From positions 29,866,501-29,930,500 of the forward strand of contig OY754470.1 of assembly GCA_963575645.1 (NCBI GenBank): a stretch of 64,000 nucleotides of DNA, written 5' to 3'. The first letter of the stretch is position 1. Each line of letters begins with the position of its first letter. The notes under the pieces are model-generated. The model saw only the letters and a list, made by a program, of their open reading frames with translations, was not told the origin of the DNA and ran no database searches. Shown here one piece after another: positions 20,524-63,840 of this stretch. A program made the translations under genes and the position numbers. This DNA comes from Xanthostigma xanthostigma (lineage: Eukaryota; Arthropoda; Insecta; Raphidioptera; Raphidiidae).

Positions 20524-21740
20524 ATTAATATTAGTGATGTGTCGCTCCTGATAATAAACGACTTCTCTCTCGGAGCGGAGCGAGTCGCTCTTTTGTTTTG
20601 TGAATGACTCACTCCGAGCGCCATTGCTCTGTGCTGAGCTAAGTTTCGGACATTTACAGAGCGCACACAGCACTGGTCACAAAGGCACTAGTGAATTTTG
20701 CACGTACGGAATTGTCTTTGCTGAGTCATTTAATGTTGAACACTGTCAGTGTACTAAACTTATAGTGACTTAAACCATTCACATTGACGTCGTTGCTAAA
20801 GATGTAGTAATATTGTAACAATAAACATTATTGGAAGATTTAAAAGGAAGAATCCTGGTGGCATAGGATCGATGAAACAAAGCAAATACTGAAGGTTTTT
20901 ATTGCATTTTATTGTCTGACGTTTCGGCAATCTTTATGTCATCTTCGGAGAATCTAGAAGAAAAGTTTTAAATTATTGTTGTTTCAGTTGTTATTGTTAA
21001 AGTTAATTGTTCTTAAAGTTGTTATTGTTAAAATTATTGTTGTTAAAATTAAAGTTAAAAATTGGAAGTAAAATAAATAAACTTACCAATGCTGTCTGTT
21101 TTCTCAGTATTGTTGTTATGTTATTTTATACATAACAACAATACTGAAAAAACAGACAGCATTGGTAAGTTTATTTATTTTACTTTCAATTTTTAACTTT
21201 AATTTTAACAATAACAACTTTAAGAACAATTAACTTTAACAATAACAACTGTAACAACAATAATTTAAAACTTTCCACATATGAATCGTCTAGATTCTCC
21301 GAAGATGGCATAAAGATTGTCAAAACGTCAGACAATAAAAAGCAATAAAAACCTTCAGTATTTGCTTCGTTTCATCGATTCTTCCCTTTTAATCTTCCAA
21401 CATTGTAACAGGGTCATCATCACTCTAAATTATTAGAGTTATTTTTTCACAATAAACATTATTATTGTTAAGCTTTTATTATACTTTATAGTTTATCCGA
21501 AATGCAAATAATATCATAATCATATTAAAATGAGCTCAGAGCTAAATGTGAGTATTGTGCAACGCTACATGACTCATGTATGGTGACAGTTCACACCTCT
21601 GCAGTCTGCACTCTTATGTAGTGCGTACTGTCAAGTGTCGCTCCTTTGAACGACTCGCTCTGAGCGACTCTTTTTAGTGAGCGGAGCGCACAGAGCCAGC
21701 TCCAAATAAAGAGTCATATGAACACATCACTAATAAATAT
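20524..21740. mobile_element. hAT element with TAGTGATGTG ends, holding a PLE fold-back
   Basis: The left end TAGTGATGTGTCGCTCC starts at 20532. The right end is its inverse, finishing CACATCACTA at 21732. The flanks ATTAATAT (20524-20531) and ATAAATAT (21733-21740) match at 7 of 8 bases, the expected 8-bp hAT TSD. Both ends also share GAGCGACTC-type subterminal motifs. No transposase. The interior contains the separate insertion at 20833-21448. Confidence 0.75.
20818..21463. mobile_element. Fold-back PLE-type element A with 15-bp TSD
   Basis: The 15-bp duplication ACAATAAACATTATT (20818-20832 and 21449-21463) brackets a 616-bp palindrome centred near 21118. Each arm carries a hammerhead-like core, both degraded here (CCGAAGA at 20942-20948 minus with intact GAAAC; CCGAAGA at 21299 plus with AAAAC). 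A short tail outside the symmetric part (ATCATCACTCTAAATTATT) also ends the related element at 46937-47529. Confidence 0.85.
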
Positions 21741-22512
21741 ATTATGAGCGTGCAGTAATATGTAACTGTGCGAGGGGTAAAGGGGTTGATTAAAATCAGA
21801 GCGTCGTTGGTATGAGTATAGTGAGGCAAAGCACCGCAAGTTCAATCAGATTACAAGATTAGTGAGTATCGCCCACATGTTCTGAACGTGTGAGCTGAAT
21901 ATTGGCCCCACAATGTACGTTGTCCACATGACGGTGTGGTCGTATAGGGCTGTGCTATGCTAGACAAAAATCATTGTTACCAACAACAATCTCTATATTT
22001 AAAAGCAGAGCTATAGATATTATGACCCGAATCACTTAGAATTCGAATCCTTCTTGAGGATTCGAGTTCGGTATTCGTGATCTGAAATCGTACGACAAAA
22101 AAATGGCTCGAATTTGAATACTCAGTGTTTGTATACGAATTCTTCTGAAAGGAATCGAATCATCACGAATAATTCGAATCCAAAAGCTGAGTAGTCAAAT
22201 ACGAATCCTTTTTTTATTTTTCTTAGAAATTTGGATCACGAATTTCGATTTATCTTTAAAAACAACGAAGTTTTGTTATTTCAAAGTTTAAATTTGATCT
22301 CAGTGCAGGTGGCGCAACGCGGCTCAAGTGTCATATTTATTGTAACTAATAATATAGTAAGTAATGAATGTAAGATAGTAAGTAATTATGAAGGCTACAG
22401 AAAATTATCAGTTGAATAGATGTAAAAATGATTGTAATATCAATTAGGGAATTTGACATTTAAATATATACATTCATGATTTACTATATTATTACTTACT
22501 ATAACCACTAAT
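21741..22512. other. No gene; GAATTCG-rich stretch 22030-22240
   Basis: The stretch is full of GAATTCGAATCC-type motifs in both orientations, reminiscent of hAT subterminal repeats, but no pair of ends or TSD was found. A 15-mer TGTGCTATGCTAGAC at about 21951 recurs at 33460. Confidence 0.35.
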
Positions 22513-22840
22513 ATAACACCTTATTAAGATGAAGGAAGGTTTTGGTTGATGATCATAAAATAAGCTTTACCAGTGTTTCGCTAGTGGCCAACGTTTCGAA
22601 AAATTTATTTTCATCTTCAGGGCCTATGAACATGTATATATTTATATAATTTAGAACATATTGTATCACAATATATACATATATTCATGTTCATAGGCCC
22701 TGAAAATGAAAATAAATTTTTCGAAACGTTGGCCACAAGCGAAACACTGGTAAAGCTTATTTTATGATCCTCAACCAAAACCTTCCTTCATCTTAATATT
22801 CTATTGGATCAACACTACTTTATACTGAATAACACCTTAT
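22513..22840. mobile_element. Fold-back PLE-type element B with 12-bp TSD
   Basis: The exact duplication ATAACACCTTAT (22513-22524 and 22829-22840) flanks a 304-bp palindrome. The left arm (minus strand) has an intact core: CTGAAGA, T, a stem GAAAAT/ATTTTTC, then GAAACGTTGGCC (22593-22620). The right arm has CTGAAAA instead. An asymmetric tail of about 35 bp follows the right arm (ATTCTATTGGATCAACAC). Confidence 0.88.
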
Positions 22841-23640
22841 GCCGCGTGACGTCGCAATGAACGGCCAAACGTGCATTTCACCTGAACTGACTGACAACGT
22901 GATAACTTCAATGTTATTAAATTTTATTGCAGAAATATTTACACAACCCTAATGCGTAGCATCTCTCAACCTACATAATATAGGTACTCGCTTAGGGTGT
23001 GAAAAACTGTTCACCCGTTAAAATTACTTATTATAAGTTACCACACTTATAAAATTTTAGTGCATTTTCCGCGTAGATGCAGATGGAAAACTAAAAAAAA
23101 ATAAACAAAAATAAAAGGTGAATAATTTTAGATAACATTATGTTCATAAATGAAACTAAACTTTTCTACTTTGTTCAATTTAATTTGCGTTTACAAATTA
23201 AATTGATTATTGACAATTATTTAATGTTTAACGGTTTTAGTTAAGAGTCCCAAGTAAAAACAATCTTCCAAGAAACAAACTTTACAAATTACAGCTTTAA
23301 CATTATCCAAATTTTCTAAATTAATATTATTATTTTATAAAATGTAGTAGTTTTGTATCTCCCCTTTTATTTTAGGTATAAAAATTCCAGCCAATTGGAC
23401 GACGAGAGATTCAAAAATATTGACATTTGATAAAATATAATAAAAAGAATAAAATTTCTGATATCGCGTGAGGTGACGCTGGTAATGGCTGGTATTCAAT
23501 ATGATATTTGCTATTCGTTGCCATGGTTACCTATAAAATATATTCGTCATGTAAAAATTAATAAAAGCATGTTTAATTAGTTTATTTCTGACAGATCTAC
23601 AAAACAAAAGAACAGCTGATTTTTTCAAAATATAAAGTTT
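22841..23640. other. AT-rich sequence, no gene seen
   Basis: No element ends or coding sequence recognised. Confidence 0.45.
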
Positions 23641-24010
23641 AGAAAAAAAATGTTTCGACGAAACTTTTTTGAAATATTAAATATAATAATAAGCCGTTAT
23701 GAAAAGTAGACCATCATTATATAAAAAACACCGTTATAGCATATATCTCTTCTGCGCATGCGCCGATTTTCCCCAAAAACAATAGGACTCTTCATATTTG
23801 CTTACCAAACATCCTCCTAAAATTTAGTTTCAATCCGCTCATCCGTTTGCCCTGTATCGTGTTCACAGACTAACAGACGCACAGAGTTTCTCCAAAAATA
23901 TGTTTTTTTGGGTTCAGGGGACCTCAAAACAGAAAGATAATGTAAAATATTTGAAAAGTGATTTTTGACCTAAACTTGTGCCATTCCCCACTTGTGGGTT
24001 GGAATGGTAA
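23641..24010 (-). mobile_element. Relative of the satellite-bearing element
   Basis: On the minus strand it reads ATTACCATTCCAACC, later GATGAGCGGATTGAAAC, then TTTTTGGGGAAAATCGGCGC and ATGCGCAGAAGAG, then ATATAATGATGGTCTAC. This matches the order at 5042-5200 and the copy at 62920-63200. It lacks the 120-bp satellite. Confidence 0.6.
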
Positions 24011-26429
24011 TATGTTAAAAATTACTGTCTTAAAAAAAAGTTGATAAAACGAAGGCAGTTCAATTTGAAGTCTCAACTTGAAAACAAATATTGCCTAGAA
24101 CACAATCATTTAATGGTGTCAAAAAGCGGAGCCAATTTTTTTAATTAAGTAGTTACCTACATCATTTCAATCTAAGTATTAGTATTAAAATAACCATAGT
24201 CTATAATATATCTGTGACAGGTACATCCTCCATTAAGGATGTGTATAACATTTTTGGATTCAAAGATTTTTGTCTAAATTTAAAATATGTTATACAATTA
24301 GACCTCCTGGATCGATTAAAACCAAAAAATAGATACCTTACCGACTTTTTTATGAAAAAATTAATTTTAAAATCACCATTCACTTAATGTTATTTCTACC
24401 GGAAGTGTTAAAAATTTTGAGAAGATTAAAACATTTATCATTTTATTTATGATGAAAATTTATGATTCAAAAACTTATTATCAGTTTCTTTGTACAATTT
24501 GCGATTTTAAAAGCCCAAAAACACGTGGGGTTGCCGGCAATTCCACGGAAATATTTTATTTTGAAAGTGATGAAATCAATTCTCAAAATCTTAATCTTAA
24601 TTAATTGCTTGATTGTTTTTGACTAAAGTCACAGTAGTCAAATTAAATGTTAAATATTTGTTCATAATATTTAATTATAGGTAAATTTTTAGAAAATCTA
24701 TCATACAAAATCATTAAAATTAACACGCAAATGAAAATTTTTATATATTTATGATATTGAAAATTTTATTTGATGTACTACACAATTTGACCTTATACAC
24801 ATCCTTAAATTAAAAACAAATAGGTAAGGTCTATCTCTGTATAATCTAAGGTATCAGTCTATAAAATATTCATTCTGAAATGCCTAGCTATTTGAATGAT
24901 ATTTGCAGGAAGTCATATACATATCTTAAGACAGCTCTTGCTTTACAAAGACACTAAAGCTACCTCACGCAGAGTCTGAGAACGTCAAGTGAATAAATAT
25001 GTGCATAATAAATAGCTTTAAGAGCTTCATGAAAAGAGCTTATCATTTTTCTCAGTGTGAAGTGTATACAAATGTCAATTTAAGGTTTAGAAGCAAAATA
25101 AATTTATTTGATAAAACAGAAAGTGACACAACGAAGTACCATATTACTTGGCGCCATGGTCAGTTTTAAAGTCTGGCACCGCATACAAATTTAGTGCTCA
25201 CTTCGAGGAGACAAGGGTTTCTTTTTGTTATTGATTCACTATGTGGTTAGCAAATGTTTTTTTGAAAATTAGCTATTCATAGTGTATCTGTTGTTTTATT
25301 GTCATCAATTGCTTATTATTAGCTTTGCTGTCTCATCTCAACGAGAAATATACATTATTTTCAAAGGAGAAATTTGCAATGTTCTAGCGGCGCCACCGAT
25401 GATACGCAATAAACTAATAATATATACATGCTTGTGATCTGACACAAAAATTCGATGCAGTGACGTCAGATCACGTTGACTTGGCGTTTTGGCGCGAATT
25501 AAAAAAAGTCATATTTTAATATGCGTGTTTGAAATGACTGCTGCATATTTTTAATTTTTCGTTTTAAATATATTTATGTGAGACTTAAATCTTTCTTTAC
25601 GCTGAAAAAAACATACGTACAAGTTCTCTACGGAATTCAACACGAGAGTACATATTTTATGACTTACGGCAGTCAACGCAAAGTCTACTTTCGAAGTAGA
25701 CACATCTTTGACGATTTTTGATTCGACTTTCAGTTTTAAAACTTGATTTTATAATGTCATTTGTTTTCGACATAATGCGGAGGTCTCCATTTAGTTGAAA
25801 ACAAACAGCATTTTTAAATGTAGATTTAATGTCGAAAGTCGTACCAGAATTCCACCATAAATCTAATTTCAAAGTAGACTGAGCGTGCCCAAACCGAGCA
25901 TTAGTATTATTGATTATTTCATTTGTAGGATTTTTTTATTTCGTATATTATAAAAAAAACACTAACTGAATCTAATAGCTAGATGTAATACCTTTAACTG
26001 GGTATTCTAATCTAATTTATAGACTATTAAATATAAATTTAAAAAAAGTCTCAAACAATTTTTCTTTATTATTGCTTTTTATATTAATAAATTTAAAGAA
26101 ATAAGGACTTTTTCATCGATATTTCTATATTGATATCAATAATATTGACTTTATTTTCTCTTGTAAATCGCTGAATGTTCCAGAATAATTTTTACTGTGA
26201 CAATATGACTTACTACATTCAGAGAAAGCTTTTAGCTTGTAGAACTCGAGCAGCAGAATACTACAAAAACACAAAAAAATCGGGGACTATTAATAACTAT
26301 TCAAAAAGTTTTGTCTTAATAATATTTCAGACGCATTATAAAATATGACATTGCATCTAAAAACAAAGTGCAACGGACGTTATCCAGAGACAGTTTTGAC
26401 CTTTACATGACCTTTATTATGACGGCTGA
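24011..26429. other. AT-rich sequence, no gene seen
   Basis: About 2.4 kb without a recognised element. Minor inverted similarity links 24228-24250 (AAGGATGTGTATAACAT) with 24788-24808 (TTATACACATCCTTAAAT). Frames up to 71 codons only. Confidence 0.4.
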
Positions 26430-28121: not shown

Positions 28122-28160
<39 letters not shown>

Positions 28161-28718
28161 AACTGCAAATTAGTGTCAGTGCTGACAATAAATAAAAAAT
28201 GTACTAAAAATACGCATTACAACAAATCGTTACACTGTTTCTGTTTTTACTGTGTCATATTTATTTTGCTACATGATATCAGAAAATTGAATGTTTTTAG
28301 TGCAAAAACATATTCAGCTAATTATTCAAAGGTTTTGTTCAATCAATAACATTAAGATTTTCTGCACACCTAAGGAAAATAATTTAAAGAGAAGAAAGAT
28401 AGTAGTTATCTAACAAATTGTTATTATAATAGTTATAAATATTAATGAGTTCTCATATACCGATTTCATAAAGTAAATAATGTTTTAAACGTTAGTATTT
28501 TTACTTAATCGTATCGTGTACTATTGCTTTTTGTTCATATTATTATATTATACTCAAAACTTGAGTCGATTTGAATGTGTTTTTACAAGAAATAAGAATA
28601 ATGATATTTATTTCCTAAATTTTTTAATTGTACACTAATGTTGTTTTCATAAGAATATTAAAAATTAAAAAATAGTCTTTTTGACATGATATGTGTTTCA
28701 GATCTATTAATTTTAAGC
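27426..28718. other. No gene; G-run and (CT)n microsatellite inside
   Basis: A run of more than ten G lies near 27653-27665. A (CT)n repeat of about 35 bp lies at 28122-28156. The rest is AT-rich and unassigned. Confidence 0.5.
28122..28156. repeat. (CT)n microsatellite
   Basis: About 17 perfect CT dinucleotides. Confidence 0.95.
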
Positions 28719-28748
28719 TTGAGGAAGTTTTAATAAGTAAAACGAAAC
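28719..28748 (+). other. Solitary hammerhead-like core
   Basis: TTGAGGA, A, stem GTTTT/AAAAC around AATAAGT, then GAAACGTT: the same layout as the PLE fold-back cores with one change (T for the first C). No inverted arm or TSD was identified, so it may be the remnant of a decayed PLE end. Confidence 0.4.
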
Positions 28749-28946
28749 GTTGCGATTAAAAATATAGCTTAATAGCATTATCTTTATTGATCTAAAATCC
28801 TCTGAAAAATAATATTATAATAGTCTTTTAACAAGTTTTTAAGATCACAATTAGTGTTGAAACGCCATCAACTACAAATTTATTTAAAATTGGTATTCAT
28901 CTCGACTTATATTTTGTTTCGCCATTACAGTATAAAGTCAATTGAT

Positions 28947-29086: not shown

Positions 29087-29149
29087 ATTTAATGCCCTTG
29101 ATTACAGTAAACTTTCCTTCTGTGGTAGCTCGAATCAAACGGCAACCTT

Positions 29150-29259: not shown

Positions 29260-29541
29260 TATATCCTGAAATAAGTAAAAAACAAGCGATCCAAAAATTA
29301 GTTGTTAACAATTTTGTAGGCAACGTCTACAGTAGCCAAAGGATCCAGAAAAATGCAGTTACAGATATTAAATTTGCATATATTTTATTTATTCATTTGT
29401 TGTACTCTGAGGATGAAGGTAAATCCTTCGAAACGTTAGTCAATAAATGCAAATTTAATATCTCTAATTGCGTTTTTATGGATCCTTTGGCCACTGTAGA
29501 CGTTGTCTACAAAATTATTAACAACTAGGTATATCCTGAAA
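29260..29541 (+). mobile_element. PLE-type fold-back element C with 12-bp TSD
   Basis: The exact duplication TATATCCTGAAA (29260-29271 and 29530-29541) brackets 258 bp. The two arms (GTTGTTAACAATTTTGTAG... and its inverse) enclose a single intact core in the loop: CTGAGGA, T, GAAGG/CCTTC stem, GAAAC (29407-29434). This is the simplest member of the set, one core between one pair of arms. Confidence 0.88.
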
Positions 29542-29818: not shown

Positions 29819-30375
29819 ATCTTAAAAAAAAACTTCGGAGAAGTAAAAACTTCGTTCTGTGCTAAATTCAAAAACTTGAGGCGACTGAATCTCAGAATTA
29901 TAACTTAAAAAAAAAAGATATTCGAGGCAGACAAGAAATTGAAATCAAGCTCGAAATTCTGTGCCTAAGACGTCGAAAAAAAAAAGGAATTTTGAGGCAG
30001 ACAAGGAATTGAAATCCAACTTCGAAATTCTGTGCTTATAAAAGCTACAAGAGCAACAGCAAAAAATGCAAAGACGGTGTTCGCATAACTCCTTTAGTTA
30101 CCACTAAAAAAACGCCGTCTGTGCACTTTTTTTTTGCTGTTGCTCTTGTAGCTTTTATAAGCACAGAATTTCGAAGTTGGATTTCAATTCCTTGTCTGCC
30201 TCAAAATTCTTTTTTTTTTCGACGCCTTAGGCACAGAATTTCGAGCTTGATTTCAATTTCTTGTCTGCCTCGAATATCTTTTTTTTTAAGTTATAATTCT
30301 GAGATTCAGTCGCCTCAAGTTTTTGAATTTAGCACAGAACGAAGTTTTTACTTCTCCGAAGTTTTTTTTTTAAGA
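29819..30375. mobile_element. Large near-perfect hairpin (~250-bp arms)
   Basis: The left arm (29819-30068) and right arm (30122-30375) are inverted copies with few mismatches. The spacer of about 50 bp itself pairs (AGACGGTGTT with AACGCCGTCT). Each arm contains two diverged direct copies of a GAGGCAGACAAGRAATTG unit ending in TTCTGTGC. A 103-codon frame inside the right arm is a by-product. No TSD was settled. Transcription through it would give a long double-stranded RNA. Confidence 0.85.
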
Positions 30376-30790
30376 TTTCACGTCTTTTTCCAAAGTGTGA
30401 GACATTATTTTTATTTTTTCTCCAAAAAATAAACATATGTGCATTTTTAGAATTAAGAGGCCACAGATTCCATGAAGGCAAATTTTGAAGGCATGAAAAA
30501 AAATCAATGAACAAGACCAACCATTAAAAATACAAAAAATTTTTCATATCATTTGTAAAATACTTATTTTGCATTAAAAAAGAAGTTTCACTTTGAAAAC
30601 TTTCCTCTTTTTAATTTTTGTTGCACTTTTTATGATGAATATGTTTTTTAATAAATTAAATTATTTAAATCTAACTTCAATCATATATTTTGTTATTTTT
30701 TAATAAAAAATTTGACGAAAGTGTATTTTTCAAAAAACAAGAAAAAAAAATTAAAAATTAAAAAAGAAATAAAAATATGTATATGAGAAA
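30376..30790. other. A/T homopolymer-rich sequence
   Basis: Extremely A-rich; nothing coding. It merges into the tail of the SINE that follows on the minus strand. Confidence 0.5.
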
Positions 30791-31023: not shown

Positions 31024-31552
31024 CACGCAGTGTAAGCTGTTATTGTGGCACAGAAGTATATATGGGTGATACGAAAAATCGGTCCTATGAAAGTCACGTG
31101 GTCACAGAACTATAAAACTTGGAAACTCGTCTCATATACACGGCGTTATATGGGAGCTAGGCAAAATCAATGTATAAGAATACGTTAGAGATACGTCGGC
31201 ATTTAGCACAGAAAAGAATCTCTAACGAGATTCTTCGATTTTTTCCAATTTAATTGGGAGACTTTTAATCAATAAAAAAAAATTATTAAACCTTAGCACT
31301 TTTCGATTATGGATTTTTATTCTTGACAGTTTTAACAATTTTAACTGAATTATCAACTTTTTAATGATTTAATTTAAATTTTTATTACTTCTAATTTCTT
31401 TTTTTAATTATTTACTGCAAAAAATATAATATTAAATACAGATATTTACATAAATTTATTTTTTTTAACCTAACTTTGTACAAAAAATTCAAAAGTTAGT
31501 CTATTAAGTAAAATACTGAAATAACTAATTAATATTAAAAAAAATATTTATT
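31024..31552. other. No gene; perfect short hairpin at 31208-31236
   Basis: AAGAATCTC-TAAC-GAGATTCTT followed by a T-run stands out at about 31212-31243. In a bacterium it would pass as a terminator; here it is more likely chance or an element edge. No coding sequence. Confidence 0.4.
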
Positions 31553-32604
31553 CAACACGCGTGAGTAATATGTAATTTCGGGGCCCTGCTAAACGTGGGA
31601 GAAATAATATATTACTTCACTATAGTGTAATAATGAATTTTCTGGCGTGGGAGAAATAATGTATTACTTCACTAGTGTAATAATGAATTTTCTGGACCAA
31701 TAGAAACTCAGTAGCAAGCCCAAGCGCTAAATAATGAAAAAAACTGCAAGTAGCTTCTGGACCAATAGGAACGTGGTAGGCGGTATTGTATACTTACATA
31801 TATGAAAACAGCATCGCAATTCAGCGAAATCATGGCAATCTTGTGTATACACTGACGGTGGTACGTCAATCAATGAAGTGATTTATTATTTTTCCCTCTT
31901 TTATCAGGGCCCCGATTACATATTACTCCTGCTAGTTGAATAAAGTATTATGTGCGACTATTGATCGAAGGAGAATATTCCACTCGCGTGTGTTTTACCG
32001 CACTCGCTGCGCTCGTGCGGCAAATTTCACGCTCATGGAATCTTCTCCTTCTCTCACTAGTCGCACAATATACTATTATTCAACACGCGTGAGTAATATG
32101 TAATTTCGGGGCCCTGCTAAACGTGGGAGAAATAATATATTACTTCACTATAGTGTAATAATGAATTTTCTGGCGTGGGAGAAATAATGTATTACTTCAC
32201 TAGTGTAATAATGAATTTTCTGGACCAATAGAAACTCAGTAGCAAGCCCAAGCGCTAAATAATGAAAAAAACTGCAAGTAGCTTCTGGACCAATAGGAAC
32301 GTGGTAGGCGGTATTGTATACTTATATGAAAACAGCATCGCAATTCAGCGAAATCATGGCAATCTTGTGTATACACTGACGGTGGTACGTCAATCAATGA
32401 AGTGATTTATTATTTTTCCCTCTTTTATCAGGGCCCCGATTACATATTACTCCTGCTAGTTGAATAAAGTATTATGTGCGACTATTGATCGAAGGAGAAT
32501 ATTCCACTCGCGTGTGTTTTACCGCACTCGCTGCGCTCGTGCGGCAAATTTCACGCTCATGGAATCTTCTCCTTCTCTCACTAGTCGCACAATATACTAT
32601 TATT
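31553..32604. repeat. Tandem pair of a 528-bp palindromic element
   Basis: The block from 31553 repeats from 32081 (offset 528 bp, then 524 after a 4-bp loss in TATACTTACATATATG). Each unit has two nested inverted pairs. CAACACGCGTGAGTAATATG (31553) pairs with its inverse near 31926-31945. TATTATGTGCGACT (about 31948) pairs with AGTCGCACAATATACTAT at the unit end. CGGGGCCCTG blocks mark the inner ends. No transposase. The unit may be a MITE that duplicated by unequal exchange. Confidence 0.85.
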
Positions 32605-37126: not shown

Positions 37127-37830
37127 AATACATTTTAAAATCTTCTTGGTTTCTGGACTTGTATGCCGTGGCCATTGGTATTTCTACCTGACGTTTCGTC
37201 TACAACTGCGCTAGACATTATCAAAGGCGATGTGGTAGCGGGCGAAGTGTCCTTCTAGGCTGCTCACAGGTAATTGTTTCGACAAATGTGATACTTCCGT
37301 ATTTTATAGTCAGCGTGCTCGTGTTCTCTATTCGGTCGTAGAATGCTCTTCTGTGATTGGTCGTTCCATACAGTGGGTTGGTATTGCACAGTGCTGGTGT
37401 CCAGGTTTTACTTAGATTCAAACCTTCATCTTTGCGGTTGAAATTATTTGTGTGTTTGTGTATTTCTATGGCCTCTCTGTATATACGTGGGTAGTAACTC
37501 GATGTTCTGTCTATAACTTTGGTTTCTTCAAAAAGGATCTTATGGTTGTCTAGAGTCAACGTATGCTCGGCTATTGTAGATTTTGCAGTCTTAAAGACAC
37601 GCATAACAGAACACAAGAGAAGCTGTAGACTGGGACACATCGAAAAATCTGCAATAGCCGAGCATACGTTGACTCTAGACAACCATAAAATCCTTTTAAT
37701 AATGTCTACCGCAGTTATAGACGAAACTTCAGATAGAAATACTAATGGACCGCGGCATACAAGCCCGGAAACCACGAAGATTTGGATCAGCACCGGCTTT
37801 GAAAACCTACATACTTGGATAATACATTTT
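37127..37830 (-). mobile_element. Penelope-like element, 3' part with inverted arm
   Basis: AATACATTTT flanks the insert exactly (37127-37136 and 37821-37830). The minus strand carries the end of a PLE open frame and its 3' UTR. From about 37640 onward the plus strand repeats part of the same sequence in inverse orientation, with a deletion that joins the coding part directly to the 3' UTR core. The UTR has TTGATAA, T, stem GTCTA/TAGAC, GAAACGTC (37189-37228 minus), a hammerhead-like layout with two substitutions. The right arm has the same stem at 37701-37732. Confidence 0.85.
37221..37650 (-). pseudogene. Penelope-type GIY-YIG endonuclease C-terminus
   Basis: Within a 190-codon minus-strand frame (37793-37221), residues 75-136 read AEHTLTLDNHKILFEETKV, then YYPRIYREAIEIHKH, NNFNRKDEGLNLSKTWTPAL. 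This is the C-terminal half of the GIY-YIG endonuclease of Penelope-like retroelements: an invariant His region, REAIEI with the catalytic Glu, and the LS-x-W-x-P end. In a full element it follows the RT domain and makes the nick for insertion. Here the RT and the GIY and YIG motifs are missing; the upstream 50 or so codons are antisense of the inverted arm. The stop is at 37221. Confidence 0.85.
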
Positions 37831-39647: not shown

Positions 39648-40118
39648 ATAAAAACAGGGATTGAAGGAGATTTATTTGGTTGAGGAACAATTATTGAAAA
39701 ATAAGCTTTACCAAAGTATCGTTTGTGGCCAACGTTTCGAAAAATATATTTTCATCATCAGGGCCTCAATGCAAGTTGAGATGGTAAATTGTGCAAATTA
39801 TTGTAATATACATAGTACCTACCTACAATAATTATTTTCACATTGGACAGAACATTTTTATTAAAAAACCGTTTTATGATATTTTTAAATTTAAAAACTG
39901 TTGAAATTCATAATAAATGATCATGTATATTACAATAATTTGCACAATTTACCATCTCAACTTGCATTGAGGCCCTGAAGATGAAAATATATTTTTCGAA
40001 ACGTTGGCCACAAGCGATACTTCGGTAAAGATTATTTTTCAATTGTTCCTCAACCAAATTAAATCTCCTTCAATACATATTTTTGGAACAAAACTTCTAC
40101 TAACAATAAAACCAGGGA
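39648..40118. mobile_element. Fold-back PLE-type element D with 13-bp TSD
   Basis: ATAAAAACAGGGA (39648-39660) and ATAAAACCAGGGA (40106-40118) flank a palindrome. Both arms keep intact cores: left (minus, 39734-39761) CTGATGA, T, stem, GAAACGTTGGCC; right (plus, 39975-40002) CTGAAGA, T, stem, GAAACGTTGGCC. The stem is GAAAATATATTTTTC. An asymmetric tail ACAAAACTTCTACTAA follows the right arm, as in element E. Confidence 0.88.
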
Positions 40119-40726: not shown

Positions 40727-41043
40727 AATCATAATCTAATCTTTGATTAACGTCTGAATAGAACTTTTCAAATAAATAAAATTGTCGACCAATTTTTTTC
40801 AGACAATATATTGACAAAAATAAAATATTATAAATCAATAAAACAATATATGACTTTTGATCTGGGTTTAGATCTTCTTCAGAAATATCTAAAAATATAA
40901 AAATAGATATTTCTGAAGAAGATCTAAACCCAAATCGAAACGTTATATATTGTTTTATTGATTTATAATATTTTATTTTTGTCAGTATAGGTATTGTCTG
41001 AAAAAAATTGGTCGACAATTTTATTTATTTCAATCATAATCTA
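40727..41043. mobile_element. Fold-back PLE-type element F with 12-bp TSD
   Basis: Exact duplication AATCATAATCTA (40727-40738 and 41032-41043) around 293 bp. The right arm has an intact core: CTGAAGA, A, stem GATCT...AAATC, GAAAC (40913-40941). In the left arm the stem pairs perfectly (GATCT/AGATC) but GAAAC has become AAAAG. Relatives: 49134-49267 and a fragment at 43505-43570. Confidence 0.88.
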
Positions 41044-42304: not shown

Positions 42305-42969
42305 TTATAAAGATGTAAAGAAGGAGATTTATTTGGTTGAGGAACAATTGAAAAATAAGCTTTACCACAGTATCGCTTGTGGCCAATGTTTAGAAAAATA
42401 TATTTTCATCATCAGGGCCTCAATGCAAGTTGTGATGGTAAATTGAGGCCCTGATGAAGAAAATATATTTTTCGAAACGTTGGCCACAAGCGATACTCTG
42501 GTAAAGCTTATTTTTCAATTGTTCCTCAACCAAATAAATCTCCTTCAATACATATTTTGGGAACAAAACTTCTACTAATAAAGATGTACAGTTTGTAAGT
42601 TTGGATGTAGCAGGAAATCTCCGAAACTACTCATCCGATTACATTTTTTTTTCACTAATATTTAGAATGGACCTTCAGGATTGACATAGGGTATATTTAT
42701 TCTAAATATTGGTGAAAAAAAAACGAAAAGCGTTTTTATTTTAGGGTCATAGGCTATATATTATATAGCCTATGACCCTATGTCAATCCTGAAGGTCCAT
42801 TCTAAATATTGGTGAAAAAAAAATTGAAAATCGTTTTTATTTTAACGCCATCATATTATGATGGCGTTAAAATAAAAACGCTTTTACGTGGATTTAAATT
42901 TTGCAGCGTAAGTCGACGAAAAAACTGTAACAATCTACAAATTCGTGCAAAGCCGGACCGGGCCACTAG
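42303..42969 (+). mobile_element. Helitron-like repeat with nested palindromes and PLE E inside
   Basis: The start TATTATAAAGATGTA is interrupted by element E and resumes AGTTTGTAAGTTTGGATG (42590). The end is GACCGGGCCACTAGT, with CTAG at 42966-42969. The middle has rearranged into two hairpins: TAGGGTCATAGGCTATATA with its inverse (about 42732-42785) and AACGCCATCATATTATGATG (42842). TAGAATGGACCTTCAGGA occurs at 42662 and, inverted, near 42788. Confidence 0.65.
42307..42588. mobile_element. Fold-back PLE-type element E with 11-bp TSD
   Basis: ATAAAGATGTA flanks it exactly (42307-42317 and 42578-42588); the duplicated bases are the 5' end of the Helitron-like host. 260 bp, a shortened version of element D with most of the loop lost. 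The right core is intact (CTGATGA, A, stem GAAAATATATTTTTC, GAAAC at 42451-42478); the left core reads TAAAC instead of GAAAC. Confidence 0.88.
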
Positions 42970-46924: not shown

Positions 46925-47541
46925 ATTTAGAATGGATGAAGATTAAAGGATGAAACCTGGTGGCATAGGATCAATGAACTTTGCAAATACTGAAAATTTT
47001 TATTGCATTTTATTGTCTGACGTTTCGGCAAACTTTATTCCATCTTCAGAGAATTTATAGAAAATTTATATATAAGTTTTAAATTATTGTTGTTAAAATT
47101 GTTATTGTTAAAGTTATTGTTGTTGAAGTTACAGTTAAAAAACTGAAAGTAAAATAAATAAACTTACCAATGCTGTCTGTTTTGTCGGTATTGTTGTTAC
47201 GTAAAAAATATATTAAAATAAAAAATGTCATCAACGGGTATTAAAATTACTATTTTTTCTTGAAAAAAACGACTGATTTTTACTTAAAATTGTATAAACG
47301 TGTCAAAAGTAACTGTTTAACAACAATAATTTAAAATGTTTATATATAAATCTTCTAGATTCTCCGAAGATGGCATAAAGTTTGCCGCAACGTCAGACAA
47401 TAAAATGCAATAAAAATCTTCAGTATATTTGCGAAGTTCATTGATCCTGTGCCGACAGGTTTCAACCTTTAATCTTCGAATATTTAAACAGGATCATCAT
47501 CACTCTAAATTATTAGAGTTATTTTTCACATTTATAATGGA
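46925..47541. mobile_element. Fold-back PLE-type element G with 12-bp TSD
   Basis: ATTTAGAATGGA (46925-46936) and ATTTATAATGGA (47530-47541) flank a 593-bp relative of element A (shared CCTGGTGGCATAGGATC, TTATTGCATTTTATTGTCTG, CAATGCTGTCTGTTTT). The left core is intact on the minus strand (CTGAAGA, T, GG...CC stem, GAAAC; 47032-47059). The right core has CCGAAGA and GCAAC. The centre has lost part of one arm. Confidence 0.85.
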
Positions 47542-51429: not shown

Positions 51430-51431
51430 TC

Positions 51432-58733: not shown

Positions 58734-59568
58734 GATGTGGATCTGCATTATATTATGCTAAAACAAATCTGACGTAAGCCATTTTACTTCGTGACCACAA
58801 AATTAACTATGCATGCAAGAGGATGTGATGTAACTGATGCTGTTGTTATAAATGCAGACAAAACATAACAGTGAAATAATTTATTACACGAGATTCACGT
58901 TGACTCTGTTTTTTTTTTTAAATTAGATAGAAAGTTCACGGTCACTAAGTGGACTGACCAGTGGACCTAACATGTCTTTTATATTTATTTTTGATGCATC
59001 TGAATTTGTCTGATTAGTGATTATTACCTTCAACATTCTAGTTTTAAGGTCAGAAGGTTGCGTGTTTTATGTTTTTTTTTCTTTTTACTAATGAATAACT
59101 AATCCTCTGTCCTTCGTGAGAAATCTGTGTATATTTTGACAATTTTTCAATTATCAATGATATCTTGTAAAATACCCATAATTACAAGATTTTTATTGAA
59201 TTTGAAAAACGCTTAAAACAAAATCTTAAGGTCGTCAACTACTTTTGTTCTTTATTGTTTTCTAATAAATGTGTATATTGATACATGTACACGAACAATA
59301 AATAAAAACCATGTAAATAATTGAATTATCGGTCCTTTCACGCGTTATCTATCATCTCTTAATCGTTTACACAAATAAGTAAACACGTTGTGCTCAGTGT
59401 GCTACTTTTTATTTTTGCGCGAAATGTAACTGACCTTCCATAATATTGGATTGTTATGCATACGATCTGTATCAACAACTGCATTTAACTAGATATTTAG
59501 TTTACTCTTTTCTGAATCTGCTTTGATATGTTACTAGCAATCTTTCTTTGAAGTCGGTTTAATTTTCA
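58734..59568. other. AT-rich sequence, no gene seen
   Basis: No recognised element. Confidence 0.4.
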
Positions 59569-59970
59569 TTTTAGTAAAAAAAGAGGGGCTCGGTTTTTTG
59601 CTTATATCTCAAAAACTATTGCAGATATCTGAAATCACGATAAAGATTCTGAAAGACCAGAAAATTTCCTACATAAACAGAACTCTACCACAAATATTTG
59701 TAATTTTAATTTAGAGGTGAAAATAAAGCTATAATTTTTTTTCTTGAACTAAATAAACCCGAAAATAATGTAAAAAATAGAAAACAACATTTTTAGCCCT
59801 ATTTTCACCTCTAAATTAAAATTAGAAATATTGGTGGTAGATTTCTGCAAGATAGGACTTTTATGTAGGAAATTTCCTGCTCTTTCAGAATCTTTTTTAT
59901 AATTTCAGATATCTGCAGTAGTTTTTGAGATATTCGCAAAAAAACCAAACCCCTCTTTTTTTTACTAAAA
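59569..59970. mobile_element. Fold-back element (TTTTAGTAAAAAAAG ends)
   Basis: Arms of about 180 bp: TTTTAGTAAAAAAAGAGGGG at the left and its inverse at the right, with GCAGATATCTGAAATCA, TTCCTACATAAA and TTAATTTAGAGGTGAAAATA shared further in. No coding sequence. Confidence 0.8.
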
Positions 59971-60513
59971 TGTTTGTAACTTTTGCAATTTTTTCGTCCC
60001 CCACTTCAATTTTTTCAAAAAGTTTCAAGATGTCATTCCGAATCGAATGACACAATGATCATAATTCATAATTTTTGGTGAAAGGGCACTGAAATTTATC
60101 AAAAAAGAACATGTGAACTAGACTTCGAATTTGGTTTCGAGAGAATATTTGAAGATGCAACGAAATTATCGCAAGAACATTTTCTGCAAAACCCAACAAA
60201 TCATGAGAAGAGAGATATGTTAGGTAGGTATTTAGGTACTTACAAAAGAATGATACGATTTTTAAAGTTTTACTCAATAATAATTAGTTCAAAAGTATGT
60301 TAAAAAAACACATAAAGGTGGTCTAAAACATGAAATATTTTGATAACCATTCATGCATAGAAACGATAATTACAGCTACTATAAAGTACCGGATTCATAA
60401 TACTAAGTGTTCGATTTACTGTTGCGTTCAGTTGATACCAAATATGTAAATGGCTTAAGTTCAAAAATTAAAAAAAAAATTGTATCACGCAGCACATCGA
60501 AGAAATAGCGAAT
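59971..60513. other. AT-rich sequence, no gene seen
   Basis: A 72-codon minus-strand frame (60277-60059) is not recognised. Confidence 0.4.
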
Positions 60514-60704
60514 TCACTCGACAATTATCCAAGTGTGTAGGCTTTCACGGCCGGTGTTGATCCAAATCTTCTTGGTTTCCGGGCTTGTATGCCGTGGTCC
60601 ATTGGTATTTTTTAATGTCTACCGCAGTTATAGACAAAACATCAGGTAAAAATACCACGGCATACAAGTCCGGAAACCAAAAAGATTTGGATCACTCGAC
60701 AATT
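60514..60704. mobile_element. Minimal PLE fold-back with 13-bp TSD
   Basis: Exact duplication TCACTCGACAATT (60514-60526 and 60692-60704). The 165-bp insert is a reduced version of the Penelope element at 37137-37820: arms CTTGTATGCCGTGGTCCATT and inverse, around one stem GTCTA/TAGAC (60613-60640). GAAAC has become AAAAC. Confidence 0.88.
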
Positions 60705-61110
60705 GATGTTTATCAGGAATTTTATAAAATCTTAAGCGTAGTTGTGTTATTGGCAGCTGTCTATTAACATGGCGGCCGCTTGCGCAGCTTATATGCGCAA
60801 ATCAGGTTTTATACTTCAGTTTCTTTAAACTAATAAATAATATTAAAATATTGTATATTTGATTTTGTCATGCCCACTGTGTAGAGATATGTTTATATAC
60901 GCCTATTGTTTTGATTCTACTTTAACGAATCTTGAACTTTTTTCGTAAACTTTAAGCACAGAAATCGATATAACTTTACCAATAGATCCATTTCTCTTGA
61001 CATCTAATCCCACGACAACTATAAATAATACCACGGTTTTATTTTGTTCACACCTTACTCGCTATCAACTGTGTACAGTCCCTTCCAATAGCGGTGAATA
61101 TAAAAAAAAC
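60705..61110. other. AT-rich sequence, no gene seen
   Basis: No recognised element. Confidence 0.4.
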
Positions 61111-61910
61111 CGTTCAAGTGCGAGCCGAACTCGCGTGGAGAGGGTTCCATATCATTCCGTTTTCCCTGATAACTTAACGACTTGGGATTTTCGTTTAGGT
61201 TATCCTGTAAAGTATGAGTGAAGTCCTATAATCCCTAATTTTTTCAAAATTTTAGGCTTACTAGGTTCGTGTATTTTCTTCAATATTTTTTAAACTATGC
61301 ATTTTAAAATTAAAAAGTATAAACCGAGCGAGGTGGCGTAGTGGTGAGAGCACTAGACTCGCATTCGGAGGGTATTGGGTTCGAATCCCGGCGGAGGCAG
61401 ATGTGGCTGGAACTTTTTCCTGCTGCCTCTCGCCGAGAACCGATAATTCCTGTACCGGCCATCTTGTTGAGGTTTTCCATGGTTTCCCTCAATGATGCCA
61501 GATAAATATCGAGACTGTTTCTTATTCAAGGCCATGGCCGATTATCTGTCAAACTCCTATGCTCAAAATTTGCCTACCTTATCCTAAATTTCTAAAATTC
61601 CTTCATTCGTCCAATGCTGTTAGTATAATATATTATTTGTAATTCTCATAACGAGCCCTTTCATTTGATATGTCGCAAGATTCACTAGAAATGTTTTTCT
61701 AAGTTGCCACCGAAAGTTAACTCCCAAAATCGGTATTTATTTGTTTACACTACACGTCCGTGACTGGGTAATCTGACTCTATATGTGTACCAACTTTTTC
61801 GTCCAATAGATTCTCAGAAGATATAAGCTGTGACAAACGAACAGACAGACAGATACGAGAGTGTTCCTAGAAGGGTTTCGTTTTTTCGTTAAATGTACGA
61901 AACCCGAAAA
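61111..61910 (+). mobile_element. GGTTCCG-type repeat, split by a SINE
   Basis: Starts CAAGTGCGAGCCGAACTCGC, has GATTTTCGTTTAGG and AAACTATGCAT like the 36943 copy, resumes after the SINE with CGAGCCCTTTCATTTGATAT, and ends AGAAGGGTTTCGTTTTTTCG, then GTACGAAACCCGAAAAA. The CCTTTCATTTGATA motif is also present in every unit of the 120-bp satellite. Confidence 0.65.
61316..61628 (+). mobile_element. tRNA-derived SINE with conserved central domain
   Basis: The head (61323-61400) has GGTGGCGTAGTGGTGAGAGC (A box) and GGGTTCGAATCCCGGC (B box). The body has GTTTTCCATGGTTTCCCTC, then ATGCCAGATAAATATCGAG and AAGGCCATGGCCG, a central block seen in many insect SINEs. Flanks AGTATAA at 61316-61322 and 61622-61628 may be a short TSD. 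RNA polymerase III would start at the head. Confidence 0.8.
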
Positions 61911-62687
61911 ATATAGCTGTGTCTTTGCAACATAGACGCAAAGGCATTTCGAAAGAAAAGTATTTAATCATCTAACATTTTAGGAAAGTTCGCTGCAAAT
62001 ATCGATACAAAGTCGTTGTTTGCATAGCAAAAAAAAATTGAAAAAGTGATTTGGTGCATAACAGAAAAAAAACAAAATGAGTGTCAGTATATTTAATAAC
62101 CTTCCGAAATATTTCTCAAAGTCGTCCTGTAATATAGAAATAATAATGATAATACATAAACGTATGTAGTCATTAAATTAGCATGCATCTAGCAGTCGTG
62201 TACGCGATATAAAATGAAAGGTTTTAATGAAGCCTAACGATTTTTAAACATCTAATTATGGTACGCAGCGGGCATCTTCTTTTTGTTTATCTTAACACGC
62301 GACCCACTTGACACATTACTGCGTTACCGACTGTCGTTAATTATTAGTACTATAAGTGAAATGCTACTTTGCTCTTATGAATGATAACGTGATCATTTGA
62401 TTGTTTGCGCTACACCAGGTAATTTAATTGTGATGTAATATTCATAAAATACCTGATTATTACTAGAATAATAATTGTTACGTGTGCATTTAATTTTCAT
62501 TTCGTGTATAGATTTAACTGTTAGTTTATATTTTTCTTCACTTTCAATTTGGACATACAAATTGCATTACTTCAAAGAATGTCTTTTCCCAATTACTCAA
62601 ATATAATGCGTAGAGATGATGATTTCAGTTTTAATATAGGTATAGCCTAAAAACAAACTACCTGCGCTGTTCCTGTTATTAATATAC
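61911..62687. other. AT-rich sequence, no gene seen
   Basis: No recognised element. Confidence 0.4.
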
Positions 62688-62845
62688 TTCCGGTGCGTCC
62701 CGGTTTCACCCGGGTAGATGAGTACGCACATTCATCTTAGTTTACCGAGACGAATGCTGTGTACAAATTTCATGATGATCAGAGTTATCGTTCAAAAGTT
62801 TTTGTCAGACGGACAAATTTTGAGTTTTATATAATAATAATCTGC
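62688..62845 (-). mobile_element. Helitron-like or related insect repeat
   Basis: The minus strand reads ATTATTATATAAAACTC, TTTGTCCGTCTGAC, AACTCTGATCATCATGAAAT, TACCCGGGTGAAACCGGGAC, then GCACCGGAAG. A GC-rich inverted stretch (CCCGGGT) near the 3' side fits the Helitron-like repeats, though the CTAG end is missing. Confidence 0.45.
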
Positions 62846-62919
62846 CTTATAATCCTTTCTTTCACTAAAAATGTTACTAGTTTTGGCGTTAAATGATCCA
62901 TGGTAATTATAATTGTGTA

Positions 62920-63205
62920 AATCTTACCATTCCAACACCACATGTGAGGAATGGTTCTAATTTAGGTCAAAATTTTCTTTTCAAATTTTTTTCATTTTGA
63001 GCTTCCTCGAATCTAAAAAACCCATTTTTGTGCGTCTGTTATTCTGTTTGTGAATACGACACAGGTCAAACGAATGAGCGGATTTTAATCAAATTTTGGG
63101 ATTATGTTTGATATACAAATAGGAAAAGCTCTATTGTTTTTGGGGAAAATTCAAAATTGGTGCATGCGTAGAAGAGTGATATATCGTCGTTGGTTCTGTA
63201 ATAGC
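62920..63205 (+). mobile_element. Relative of the satellite-bearing element
   Basis: ACCATTCCAACACC (62927), then AACGAATGAGCGGATTTTAA, TTTGGGATTATGTTTGATAT, TTTTTGGGGAAAATTC and GCATGCGTAGAAGAG follow the same order as 5042-5150 and the inverse of 23720-24010. No satellite units. Confidence 0.6.
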
Positions 63206-63571
63206 TCTTACGTGCATAGTTGGCAGATTTTACGTTTTTTAAATGAAAAGATTCAGGAAACGGAGCTCTATACACTAGTAATACCTCCAAATTAATTTTA
63301 CAGTAACCAACAAGGGGAAGTAATTCTTATGTGAAAAGTTGTATCAAATAATTCGTCCCATGTGCCAATAAATCCGAAATTAACGTTAAATATTTTTTAA
63401 GAAAATACTTCGTCTTAATTAAACACGTATAGTGAAGATAAGTATGAATTAGTAATATACCTCTGAAATTGCTAGTTCTTACCATCCATTGCTGAAATAA
63501 CCACTTTTTGACCTTTCCTGCACATTTTACTTTTTACACATAAGAGGTATTACAGAACCAACGACGATATG
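63181..63571. mobile_element. Fold-back segment (TCGTCGTTGGTTCTG arms)
   Basis: ATATCGTCGTTGGTTCTGTA followed by ATAGCTCTTACGTG at about 63180 returns inverted at 63537-63571 with three mismatches. The loop is about 320 bp and unassigned. Confidence 0.6.
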
Positions 63572-63741
63572 CTAAAAAGTTGTTTTTTTACACTAGGTAG
63601 AATAAAATGAACTGAGCAGTAATAATCTAGTTCACCCTCTTTGCAGAAAAGCAACTATAATATGAGACCCAATGAGCACATAAATCTTCTAATTTGCACT
63701 GATTTTTCACTCGGCACTTACTGATCTTCAGCAAGTGTTTG

Positions 63742-63840
63742 CTGAAGATGAGAGCATAGCTCCCGAAATGTACATCCGCTAATAAAACTATTGTGGTAGG
63801 AAGTAACTATTCTTTATTTTTTTAATTATGATCACTTTGT
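63742..63840 (+). mobile_element. PLE-type fragment with intact core, GAAAT variant
   Basis: CTGAAGA, T, stem GAGAGC/GCTCCC (one mismatch), GAAATGTACATCCGC (63742-63775), followed by TAATAAAACTATTGTGGTAG. The segment after the core matches the minus strand at 34190-34281. A small hairpin TTCAGCAAGTGTTTGCTGAA overlaps the start (63727-63747). Confidence 0.5.

What the first reader, a model, noticed from the sequence alone, without database searches (positions are those of the whole stretch)
20833..63769. Many unrelated-looking fold-backs share a hammerhead-like core
Intact copies of CTGANGA, one base, a stem, then GAAA(C/T) occur at 22593-22620 (-), 29407-29434 (+), 39734-39761 (-), 39975-40002 (+), 40913-40941 (+), 42451-42478 (+), 47032-47059 (-) and 63742-63769 (+); degraded copies sit at 20921, 21299, 22700, 28719, 37189, 37701, 40857, 42396, 47352 and 60613. 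The stems differ completely in sequence but still pair, which looks like conserved structure. CUGANGA...GAAA is the hammerhead catalytic core, and hammerheads are known in Penelope-like retroelements. A consistent deviation is one extra base before the stem, where canonical hammerheads have a G-C closing pair. So this may be a hammerhead variant, a decayed one, or a different structure with a similar core.
Basis: partly seen in the sequence, partly recalled or inferred. Interest (0 to 1): 0.8.

Follow-up and report, generated by a model that had tools for sequence, protein, structure and literature searches.

The report
Penelope retroelement hammerheads in inverted pairs
The repeated fold-backs are small Penelope-like retrotransposon insertions, each made of two copies pointing away from each other; the shared core is the hammerhead-ribozyme motif these elements are known to carry, and the way the two ends differ hints at how the elements insert.

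Summary
All 18 listed sites are copies of one RNA motif, in seven sequence families. It is a minimal hammerhead: helix I, helix II, a two-pair loopless helix III and a NUH cleavage site. Helices I and II covary between families. The "extra base" is not decay. A studied Penelope-like element, PAc from Anolis (PMC11167929), has it too, as the U of its ORF start codon; that ribozyme cleaves only with its protein present. Rfam models miss this form.

The surroundings explain the fold-backs. Sixteen of the 18 motifs lie in nine insertions (165-684 bp), each two arms joined 5' to 5', flanked by 10-15 bp direct repeats. Family E encodes Penelope protein ends. These look like inverted pseudo-LTR pairs of Penelope-like elements, a published structure (PMC3846280).

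Less expected: in nine of nine insertions one arm ends at a proximal site and the other 25-53 nt further on, like PAc's two reverse-transcription start sites. This favours two target-primed initiations, one per DNA strand, over a single snap-back cDNA. Cleavage was not tested, and the host genome search did not complete.

The parts
20818..21463 (.). Insertion B1: element 20833-21448 with 15-bp target-site duplication ACAATAAACATTATT at 20818-20832 and 21449-21463; left arm short, right arm with tail
20914..20952 (-). B1L hammerhead motif (core CCGAAGA)
21295..21333 (+). B1R hammerhead motif (core CCGAAGA, GAAA changed to AAAA)
22513..22840 (.). Insertion A1: element 22525-22828, 12-bp target-site duplication ATAACACCTTAT; right arm with 33-nt tail
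22586..22624 (-). A1L hammerhead motif, intact core, helices I and II fully paired
22696..22734 (+). A1R hammerhead motif (core CTGAAAA)
28715..28755 (+). G: isolated motif, core TTGAGGA, stem II fully paired; possible old insertion with an 11-bp direct repeat at 28671/28819 (weak)
29260..29541 (.). Insertion C1: element 29272-29529, 12-bp target-site duplication TATATCCTGAAA; left arm has the tail and stops just 3' of the predicted cleavage site
29403..29441 (+). C1 hammerhead motif (core CTGAGGA)
37127..37830 (.). Insertion E1 (coding Penelope-like family): element 37137-37820, 10-bp target-site duplication AATACATTTT
37224..37583 (-). C-terminal part of a Penelope-like ORF (59-61% identical to P0001), ending RRTLRPLPHRL*; its TGA stop overlaps the hammerhead core. 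The GIY-YIG core of P0001 itself lies upstream of this stretch and is not in the window
37186..37228 (-). E1L hammerhead motif, core TTGATAA (C3 to U with G8 to A)
37692..37734 (+). E1R hammerhead motif and start of an ORF (MSTAVIDETS...)
39648..40118 (.). Insertion A2: element 39661-40105, 13-bp target-site duplication (one mismatch); right arm with tail; 109-nt loop between arms
39727..39765 (-). A2L hammerhead motif
39971..40009 (+). A2R hammerhead motif
40727..41043 (.). Insertion D1: element 40739-41031, 12-bp target-site duplication AATCATAATCTA; left arm with tail
40847..40886 (-). D1L motif: core and stem II intact, GAAAC region degraded
40909..40948 (+). D1R hammerhead motif (extra base A instead of T)
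42307..42588 (.). Insertion A3: element 42318-42577, 11-bp target-site duplication ATAAAGATGTA; right arm with tail
42381..42419 (-). A3L motif (G12 changed to T)
42447..42485 (+). A3R hammerhead motif (extra base A)
46925..47541 (.). Insertion B2: element 46937-47529, 12-bp target-site duplication (one mismatch); right arm with about 50-nt tail
47015..47053 (-). B2L hammerhead motif
47360..47398 (+). B2R hammerhead motif (GAAA changed to GCAA)
60514..60704 (.). Insertion E2 (coding family): element 60527-60691, 13-bp target-site duplication TCACTCGACAATT; left arm with tail, same distal end as E1
60605..60647 (+). E2 motif: 5' part of core not recognisable, stem II intact
63738..63776 (+). 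F: isolated motif, core intact, GAAAT, one stem II mismatch; no insertion boundaries found

Best explanation
The motif is the minimal hammerhead ribozyme of Penelope-like retrotransposons (PLEs). Helix I is 3-4 pairs in the better copies, helix II is closed by an invariant G-C after one extra U or A, helix III is a loopless AC/GU, and cleavage is predicted after the H of NUH. It lies at the start of the PLE ORF, so the extra U is also the U of AUG. The fold-backs are PLE-type insertions in which two 5'-truncated copies of the pseudo-LTR/ORF-start segment are joined head to head between 10-15 bp target-site duplications. Families A-D show no PLE coding sequence in the window, so they are either non-autonomous or fragments of elements elsewhere. 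Likely mechanism (inferred): the PLE protein cuts both strands of the target. Each 3' end primes reverse transcription inside the element RNA, one from a proximal and the other from a distal start site. Both cDNAs run toward the RNA 5' end and are joined in the middle, giving an inverted pair with one short and one tailed arm. The hammerhead may process the RNA, helped by the protein. Shown here: motif, covariation, boundaries, duplications, orientation, end asymmetry, protein relatives of family E. Inferred: cleavage activity, mobilisation in trans, and the joining step.
For: Descriptor 6 hits vs 0.02 expected. Pairing and covariation in 17 distinct window rows: 85.0% of cells paired vs 61.8% shuffled, score 0.620 vs 0.189, 0 of 500 shuffles, best slid control 0.230. 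One row per family: 0.727 vs 0.220, 0 of 500, best slid control 0.254. Helix I was not used to pick the sites, yet its innermost pair forms in 7 of 7 families and the next in 6 of 7. A model built from families A, B, C, F finds D1R of an untrained family (E 0.0047). Direct repeats of 10-15 bp at 9 of 9 insertions; of six other inverted repeats checked, four have no flanking direct repeat of 7 bp or more and two have 8 and 11 bp. One short and one tailed arm in 9 of 9 (C1 and E2 read by eye). Copies of one family end within about 4 nt of each other (A2/A3, B1/B2, E1/E2). Family E: C-terminus 59-61% identical to P0001; of P0001's 69 listed proteins (itself included) 7 carry GIY-YIG and 4 carry RVT_1, none both, from beetles, cockroaches, lizards and a snake where named; the ORF start resembles PAc (14/44 identical). 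PAc has the same extra U, two start sites bounding a 'tail', and cleaves and extends both strands (PMC11167929). Inverted pLTRs with 8-10 bp duplications and a 31-bp tail on one of them are described in PMC3846280.
Against: No Rfam hammerhead model matches, even with E up to 10 on 161 bases. Helix I is weak at its outer end (outermost pair fails in 9 of 17 rows). The number of pairs with a double change (9 vs 7.1 shuffled) was reached by 33 of 500 shuffles (23 of 500), and related rows can beat shuffles without structure. In family E the core departs from CTGANGA. The model does not report E1R, E2, D1L or G at E up to 10 and gives E1L only 0.55. The GIY-YIG core itself is not in the window, and Pfam finds nothing in the window segment or in P0001. 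Two of nine flanking repeats (B2, E1) score 9 on a scale that 14% of random placements reach. No autonomous copy with the pLTR of families A-D was seen in the window. Arm-versus-arm substitutions do not tell one RNA template from two (0 informative sites in A; in B 4 grouping arms by element and 2 by side). PAc in vitro shows no difference in start site between strands, so strict asymmetry is not predicted by it.
Confidence: 0.87

Rival explanations
1. Same PLE identity, but the inverted pairs arise by snap-back: one cDNA (or an antisense template) self-primes and copies itself, as proposed for Adineta Penelope elements.
For: PMC3846280 proposed it from palindromes at the junctions. B1 and D1 have arms that match almost to the centre (loops of 8 and 12 nt). 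Unequal inner ends, as in A3 and B2, fit this model as well as the other.
Against: Copying one cDNA should give both arms the same outer end (my inference). All nine insertions have different outer ends, at two positions nearly fixed within a family.
Confidence: 0.22
2. The motif is conserved as a protein-binding or start-codon RNA structure and no longer cleaves.
For: PAc hammerhead mutants still insert, and no cleavage was seen without protein (PMC11167929). Several copies here have damaged catalytic bases while stem II still pairs (A3L, B2R, E2).
Against: In the better copies catalytic bases, helix I, the A15.1-U16.1 pair and H at position 17 are all kept. E1L keeps the C3-G8 pair as U3-A8, a change reported in natural hammerheads and active in vitro (PMC3088659).
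Confidence: 0.3
3. The fold-backs are DNA transposons (MITEs or foldback elements) with terminal inverted repeats that happen to carry the motif.
For: They are short, inverted-repeat elements with flanking duplications.
Against: The two termini do not match (one has an extra 25-53 nt), duplication length varies from 10 to 15 bp, and centres differ between copies of a family. Family E encodes PLE protein ends.
Confidence: 0.03
4. Metazoan retrozymes: tandem non-autonomous repeats with type I hammerheads that spread through circular RNA.
For: They are non-autonomous, carry type I hammerheads and co-exist with PLEs (PMC7229834, passages).
Against: Retrozymes are direct tandem repeats with canonical tertiary contacts. 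None of the nine insertions is a direct tandem of whole units, and these motifs are the minimal type.
Confidence: 0.03

Closest known systems
PAc, the Poseidon Penelope-like element of Anolis carolinensis (PMC11167929; section 3 in full, passages elsewhere)
   Same: CUGAGGA-U-G...C-GAAAC-GUC-AGG: same core, same extra U as part of AUG, loopless AC/GU helix III and 3-pair helix I as I read the printed RNA; two reverse-transcription start sites bounding a tail, the main one 111-118 into the ORF (E1 long end is 118 nt after A9); both target strands cut and extended.
   Different: PAc sits in tandem coding repeats. Families A-C here have 15, 2 and 8 codons after the AUG, and D lacks the AUG. The section read does not state one short plus one tailed arm as a rule.
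Adineta vaga Penelope families (PMC3846280; passages only)
   Same: Inverted pLTRs, most often head to head, 8-10 bp target-site duplications, a 31-bp tail on one of the inverted pLTRs, pLTR reaching into the first ORF codons.
   Different: No hammerhead is mentioned (0 occurrences in the main text); the tail is called optional; self-priming is the favoured model.
Minimal hammerheads of PLEs (Cervera and De la Pena 2014; not held, known here only through passages of PMC6155905 and PMC7229834)
   Same: Minimal type I hammerheads lacking helix III and tertiary contacts.
   Different: I could not check whether the extra base is stated there.
Hammerhead core variants (PMC3088659; passages only)
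   Same: Natural U3-A8 in place of C3-G8, as in E1L.
   Different: The insertions named in the passages seen are at other core positions (after A6, in GAAA, near C3), not between A9 and helix II.

Membership tests
Hammerhead ribozyme | CUGANGA and GAAA core strands | tested here: met
   CTGANGA is exact in 10 of 18 copies, with one or more changes in the other 8
Hammerhead ribozyme | Three base-paired helices around the core | tested here: met
   Helix II 90.6%, helix I 76.5%, helix III 88.2% of cells paired over 17 distinct rows; helix III is only two pairs, without a loop
Hammerhead ribozyme | Helix II follows A9 directly (10.1-11.1 pair) | tested here: not met
   One extra T or A in 18 of 18 copies; also in PAc and in nine viral-contig motifs
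Hammerhead ribozyme | Match to a curated covariance model | tested here: not met
   The models also do not report eight viral-contig motifs with the extra U
Hammerhead ribozyme | Self-cleavage | not testable with these tools
   needs transcription in vitro
Penelope-like element | ORF with reverse transcriptase and GIY-YIG endonuclease | tested here: inconclusive
   Family E: only the extreme C-terminal stretch and the N-terminus, with relatives of which 7 carry GIY-YIG and 4 RVT_1 out of 69 listed, none both. Pfam finds nothing in the window segment or in P0001. No coding sequence was recognised in A-D, F, G
Penelope-like element | Hammerhead at the pLTR/ORF start | tested here: met
   ORF start AUG overlaps the motif in E1L, E1R, E2
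Penelope-like element | Inverted or tandem pLTRs, short target-site duplications, optional tail | tested here: met
   9 of 9 insertions
MITE / DNA transposon | Matching terminal inverted repeats and fixed duplication length | tested here: not met
   one terminus longer by 25-53 nt in 9 of 9; duplications 10-15 bp
Retrozyme | Direct tandem units with canonical hammerhead | tested here: not met

The most novel reading that the evidence does not exclude
Each insertion is made by a coupled pair of reverse transcriptions: one target strand always primes at the proximal and the other at the distal start site of the element RNA, as if two protomers on one RNA are assigned different sites. The head-to-head arrangement and the 'optional' tail would then both be footprints of a single asymmetric two-strand reaction, and the hammerhead plus two start sites would be all that a non-coding parasite needs to ride on a PLE.
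Probability: 0.35. Interest if true: 0.65.

Novelty: new member of a known kind. Interest (0 to 1): 0.42.

Why it matters
How Penelope-like elements insert, and why their repeats are inverted with a tail on one side, is unsettled in the papers seen: self-priming was proposed in 2013 (PMC3846280) and two-strand cutting and extension was shown in vitro in 2024 (PMC11167929). This 64-kb window holds nine bounded insertions from five families with the same asymmetry, a pattern that separates the two models and can be tested genome-wide. It also shows that curated hammerhead models overlook forms with the extra base.

Tried and rejected
C/D snoRNA or kink-turn: snoRNA models appear only as weak hits (best 15.6 bits, E 2); not pursued further. 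MITE origin: rejected on unequal termini. A paper search for the motif letters listed three papers whose titles are unrelated. Arm-by-arm substitutions to tell one template from two: uninformative. The first 13-copy alignment for a covariance model was visibly misaligned for D, E and G, so the model was built from nine copies of A, B, C and F. A model hit at 61809 (E 0.093, better than E1L) was looked at by eye and not accepted: no clear stem II and no GAAA after it; a degraded relative of family B is not excluded. Close relatives of the PLE segment in viral contigs and of P0001 in prokaryote genome contigs: none. The host genome search did not complete.

One lead stays weak: in C1 and E2 the shorter-reaching arm begins about 5-7 nt 3' of the predicted cleavage site, as if copied from a cleaved RNA; two cases of nine are too few.
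Full report
WHAT WAS CLAIMED AND WHAT IS THERE. All 18 sites carry the motif; one coordinate (47032-47059) is about ten bases off. An exact descriptor with one spacer base finds 6 copies (four of family A, one each of C and D), against a mean of 0.02 in 200 dinucleotide shuffles; with zero or two spacer bases it finds none. By flanking sequence the 18 sites fall into seven families: A (6 copies), B (4), E (3), D (2), C, F and G (1 each). A covariance model built from nine copies of A, B, C and F recovered the three other A and B copies left out (A1R, A3L, B1R) strongly, D1R of an untrained family at E 0.0047, and E1L only at E 0.55, below an unaccepted hit at 61809 (E 0.093). At E up to 10 it did not report E1R, E2, D1L or G.

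IT IS A HAMMERHEAD, OF A MINIMAL KIND. Read as a hammerhead, the copies offer helix I around the motif, helix II inside it, and a two-pair, loopless helix III (A15.1-U16.1, C15.2-G16.2 in GAAACGU), then the cleavage-site base. For 17 distinct rows (A1L and A2R are identical pieces; stem II loops left out), 85.0% of cells form pairs against 61.8% when partners are shuffled. The covariation score is 0.620 against 0.189; no shuffle of 500 reached it, and the best slid register gives 0.230. A weaker measure, the number of pairs with a double change (9 against 7.1), was reached by 33 of 500 shuffles. With one real row per family the score is 0.727 against 0.220, again 0 of 500; the pair count was reached by 23 of 500. 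Shuffling ignores relatedness, so the one-row-per-family count and the slid registers matter most. Stem II helped to choose the sites, so it is not a clean test. Helix I did not: its innermost pair forms in 7 of 7 families, the next in 6, the third in 5 and the outermost in 3. The closing G-C of helix II is invariant. In 17 of 18 copies the cleavage triplet is NUH; the exception is D1L, whose GAAAC region is degraded.

THE EXTRA BASE. It is T in 14 of 18 copies and A in 4 (A3R, D1L, D1R, G). The RNA template printed in PMC11167929 for PAc, a Poseidon-type Penelope-like element of Anolis, has the same base in the same place: its ORF starts at stem II and the base is the U of AUG (section 3 seen in full, other parts as passages). 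Its hammerhead cleaves in vitro only when the PAc protein is present, also with endonuclease-dead protein. So the base is a design feature. In families A, B and C the AUG is kept although it opens reading frames of only 15, 2 and 8 codons in the copies translated; family D and A3R have AAG instead. Rfam finds no hammerhead in the window at its gathering scores, at E up to 10, or at E up to 10 on a 161-base stretch.

SAME VARIANT ELSEWHERE. A script ranked their 121 matches by stem II; 16 have at least 4 pairs. Eleven loci were read by eye, and nine of them (L112, L107, L102, L096, L082, L108, L010, L016, L119) show a complete hammerhead with the extra U, a real helix III, and helix I and II pairs that covary (seven rows after merging three loci: score 0.579 against 0.140, 0 of 500). 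L067 and L120 lack a helix III. The other loci were not examined for helix III. Rfam at gathering does not report the eight given to it (all but L119), nor L112 on 191 bases at E up to 10. The extra base is thus compatible with a full three-helix hammerhead.

THE FOLD-BACKS ARE INSERTIONS. Sixteen of the 18 motifs lie in nine inverted-repeat elements: A1, A2, A3, B1, B2, C1, D1, E1, E2 (165 to 684 bp). In the seven with a motif in both arms, both motifs have their 5' side to the centre; in C1 and E2 the single motif belongs to the arm that reaches furthest 5'. Each element is flanked by a direct repeat: 12, 13 (1 mismatch), 11, 15, 12 (1 mismatch), 12, 12, 10 and 13 bp in the order above. Some were first seen by eye, and the exact ends rest partly on these repeats. 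Scored on windows of 90 by 90 bases, the nine give 9 to 15. Random placements in the window reach 9 in 14%, 10 in 4.7% and 12 in 1.3% of 1,500 trials, so B2 and E1 (score 9; E1 has 10 exact bases, which the scoring understates) are unremarkable alone and the set is not. Six other inverted repeats served as a contrast: four had no flanking repeat of 7 bp or more, two had 8 and 11 bp. F and G are isolated; F has no boundaries and G only a doubtful 11-bp repeat.

ONE SHORT AND ONE LONG ARM. In nine of nine insertions one arm ends at a proximal site and the other runs 25-53 nt further (for seven; C1 and E2 by eye). From A9 (the A of AUG) the nine short ends lie at 76-116 nt and the seven long ends that can be measured at 118-159 nt; between families the ranges nearly touch, so the contrast is within insertions. 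Within a family the ends repeat within about 4 nt: A2 and A3, B1 and B2, and E1 and E2, whose distal ends both read CTTGGAT. If each arm chose its site independently, nine mixed pairs would have probability 0.002 at best (0.5 to the ninth power). PMC11167929 reports that PAc starts reverse transcription at two sites bounding the known 'tail', the most common 111-118 into the ORF, and that it cuts and extends both target strands, without a difference in start site between strands in vitro. PMC3846280 describes inverted pLTRs, mostly head to head, with 8-10 bp duplications and a 31-bp tail optionally on one of them in Adineta (passages). The window's insertions have this structure.

THE PLE LINK. 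Family E carries Penelope protein ends. The segment 37224-37583 (-) is 59-61% identical to P0001 and ends in the same RRTLRPLPHRL. It covers the stretch after the GIY-YIG core that I recognise by eye in P0001; the core itself is not in the window. P0001 finds 68 other proteins at E 0.001 or better; of the 69 listed, 7 carry GIY-YIG (PF01541) and 4 carry RVT_1 (PF00078), none both (the search only takes proteins of similar length); named hosts are beetles, cockroaches, lizards including Anolis sagrei, and a snake. Pfam and NCBIfam scans of P0001 itself give nothing, nor does Pfam with the window segment. The ORF start in E1R resembles that of PAc (14 of 44 identical, E 3e-5 for the pair). In E1L the upstream ORF's TGA stop lies inside the hammerhead core and the next ATG at stem II. 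Its core TTGATAA has both C3 to U and G8 to A, a compensatory change found in nature and active in vitro (PMC3088659, passage). I recognised no coding sequence in families A-D, F and G; whether coding relatives exist elsewhere in the genome is unknown, because the genome search did not complete.

HOW IT LIKELY WORKS. The proposed order is: transcription of an element; the PLE protein binds the segment after the AUG; it cuts both strands of the target with a 10-15 bp stagger; both ends prime internally, one proximal and one distal; both cDNAs run toward the RNA 5' end, stop at various places and are joined. This predicts head-to-head orientation, duplications, fixed outer ends, variable inner ends (loops of 8 to 218 nt in the eight insertions measured) and one tail. 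A single snap-back cDNA would predict equal outer ends, which is not seen; unequal inner ends fit both models. What the hammerhead contributes is not shown; PAc mutants without it still insert.

LIMITS. One window; no cleavage test; arm differences do not reveal the number of templates; the 2014 paper on PLE hammerheads was not held. Word searches around Penelope-like elements, hammerheads, inverted repeats and pLTRs listed no paper that I could see describing the strict asymmetry or non-coding hammerhead fold-back PLEs. I saw titles and abstract starts for most, passages of six, and the library lacks most subscription journals.

Domain counts, viral-locus counts, the weaker shuffle results, the two low-scoring repeats and the unequal inner ends were corrected or added. 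Confidence in the best explanation went from 0.88 to 0.87 because the GIY-YIG core is not in the window, and the snap-back rival from 0.20 to 0.22 because unequal inner ends do not count against it.

Noticed in passing
L112:174, L107:1273, L102, L096, L082:4418, L108, L010, L016:11740, L119 (viral contigs): At least nine of 120 fetched viral-contig loci (11 read by eye) hold a complete hammerhead with an extra U between A9 and helix II, at least four just upstream of a likely ribosome-binding site and ATG; Rfam models do not report the eight tested. Possibly an unlisted viral hammerhead subtype.
   Followed up: partly
37186-37228 (-): Core with U3-A8 in place of C3-G8, and the upstream ORF's stop codon inside the core with the next ATG at stem II.
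   Followed up: partly
29272-29529 and 60527-60691: In two insertions the shorter-reaching arm begins about 5-7 nt 3' of the predicted hammerhead cleavage site, as if copied from a cleaved RNA.
   Followed up: partly
5134-7593: Tandem array of a 120-bp satellite, about 19 register positions, inner copies mostly 94-97% identical.
   Followed up: no
14099-16682 (+): LINE-type retrotransposon with endonuclease and reverse transcriptase domains in two overlapping frames.
   Followed up: no
17425-17724 and 18549-18848: Direct duplication of at least 300 bp at 1,124-bp spacing, 99% identical.
   Followed up: no
31548-32604: Head-to-tail duplication with 524-528 bp spacing, 100% identical over the parts compared.
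   Followed up: no
29819-30376: Long, nearly perfect fold-back (arms about 263 nt, loop 29 nt) without a model R1 hit or a flanking repeat of 7 bp or more.
   Followed up: partly
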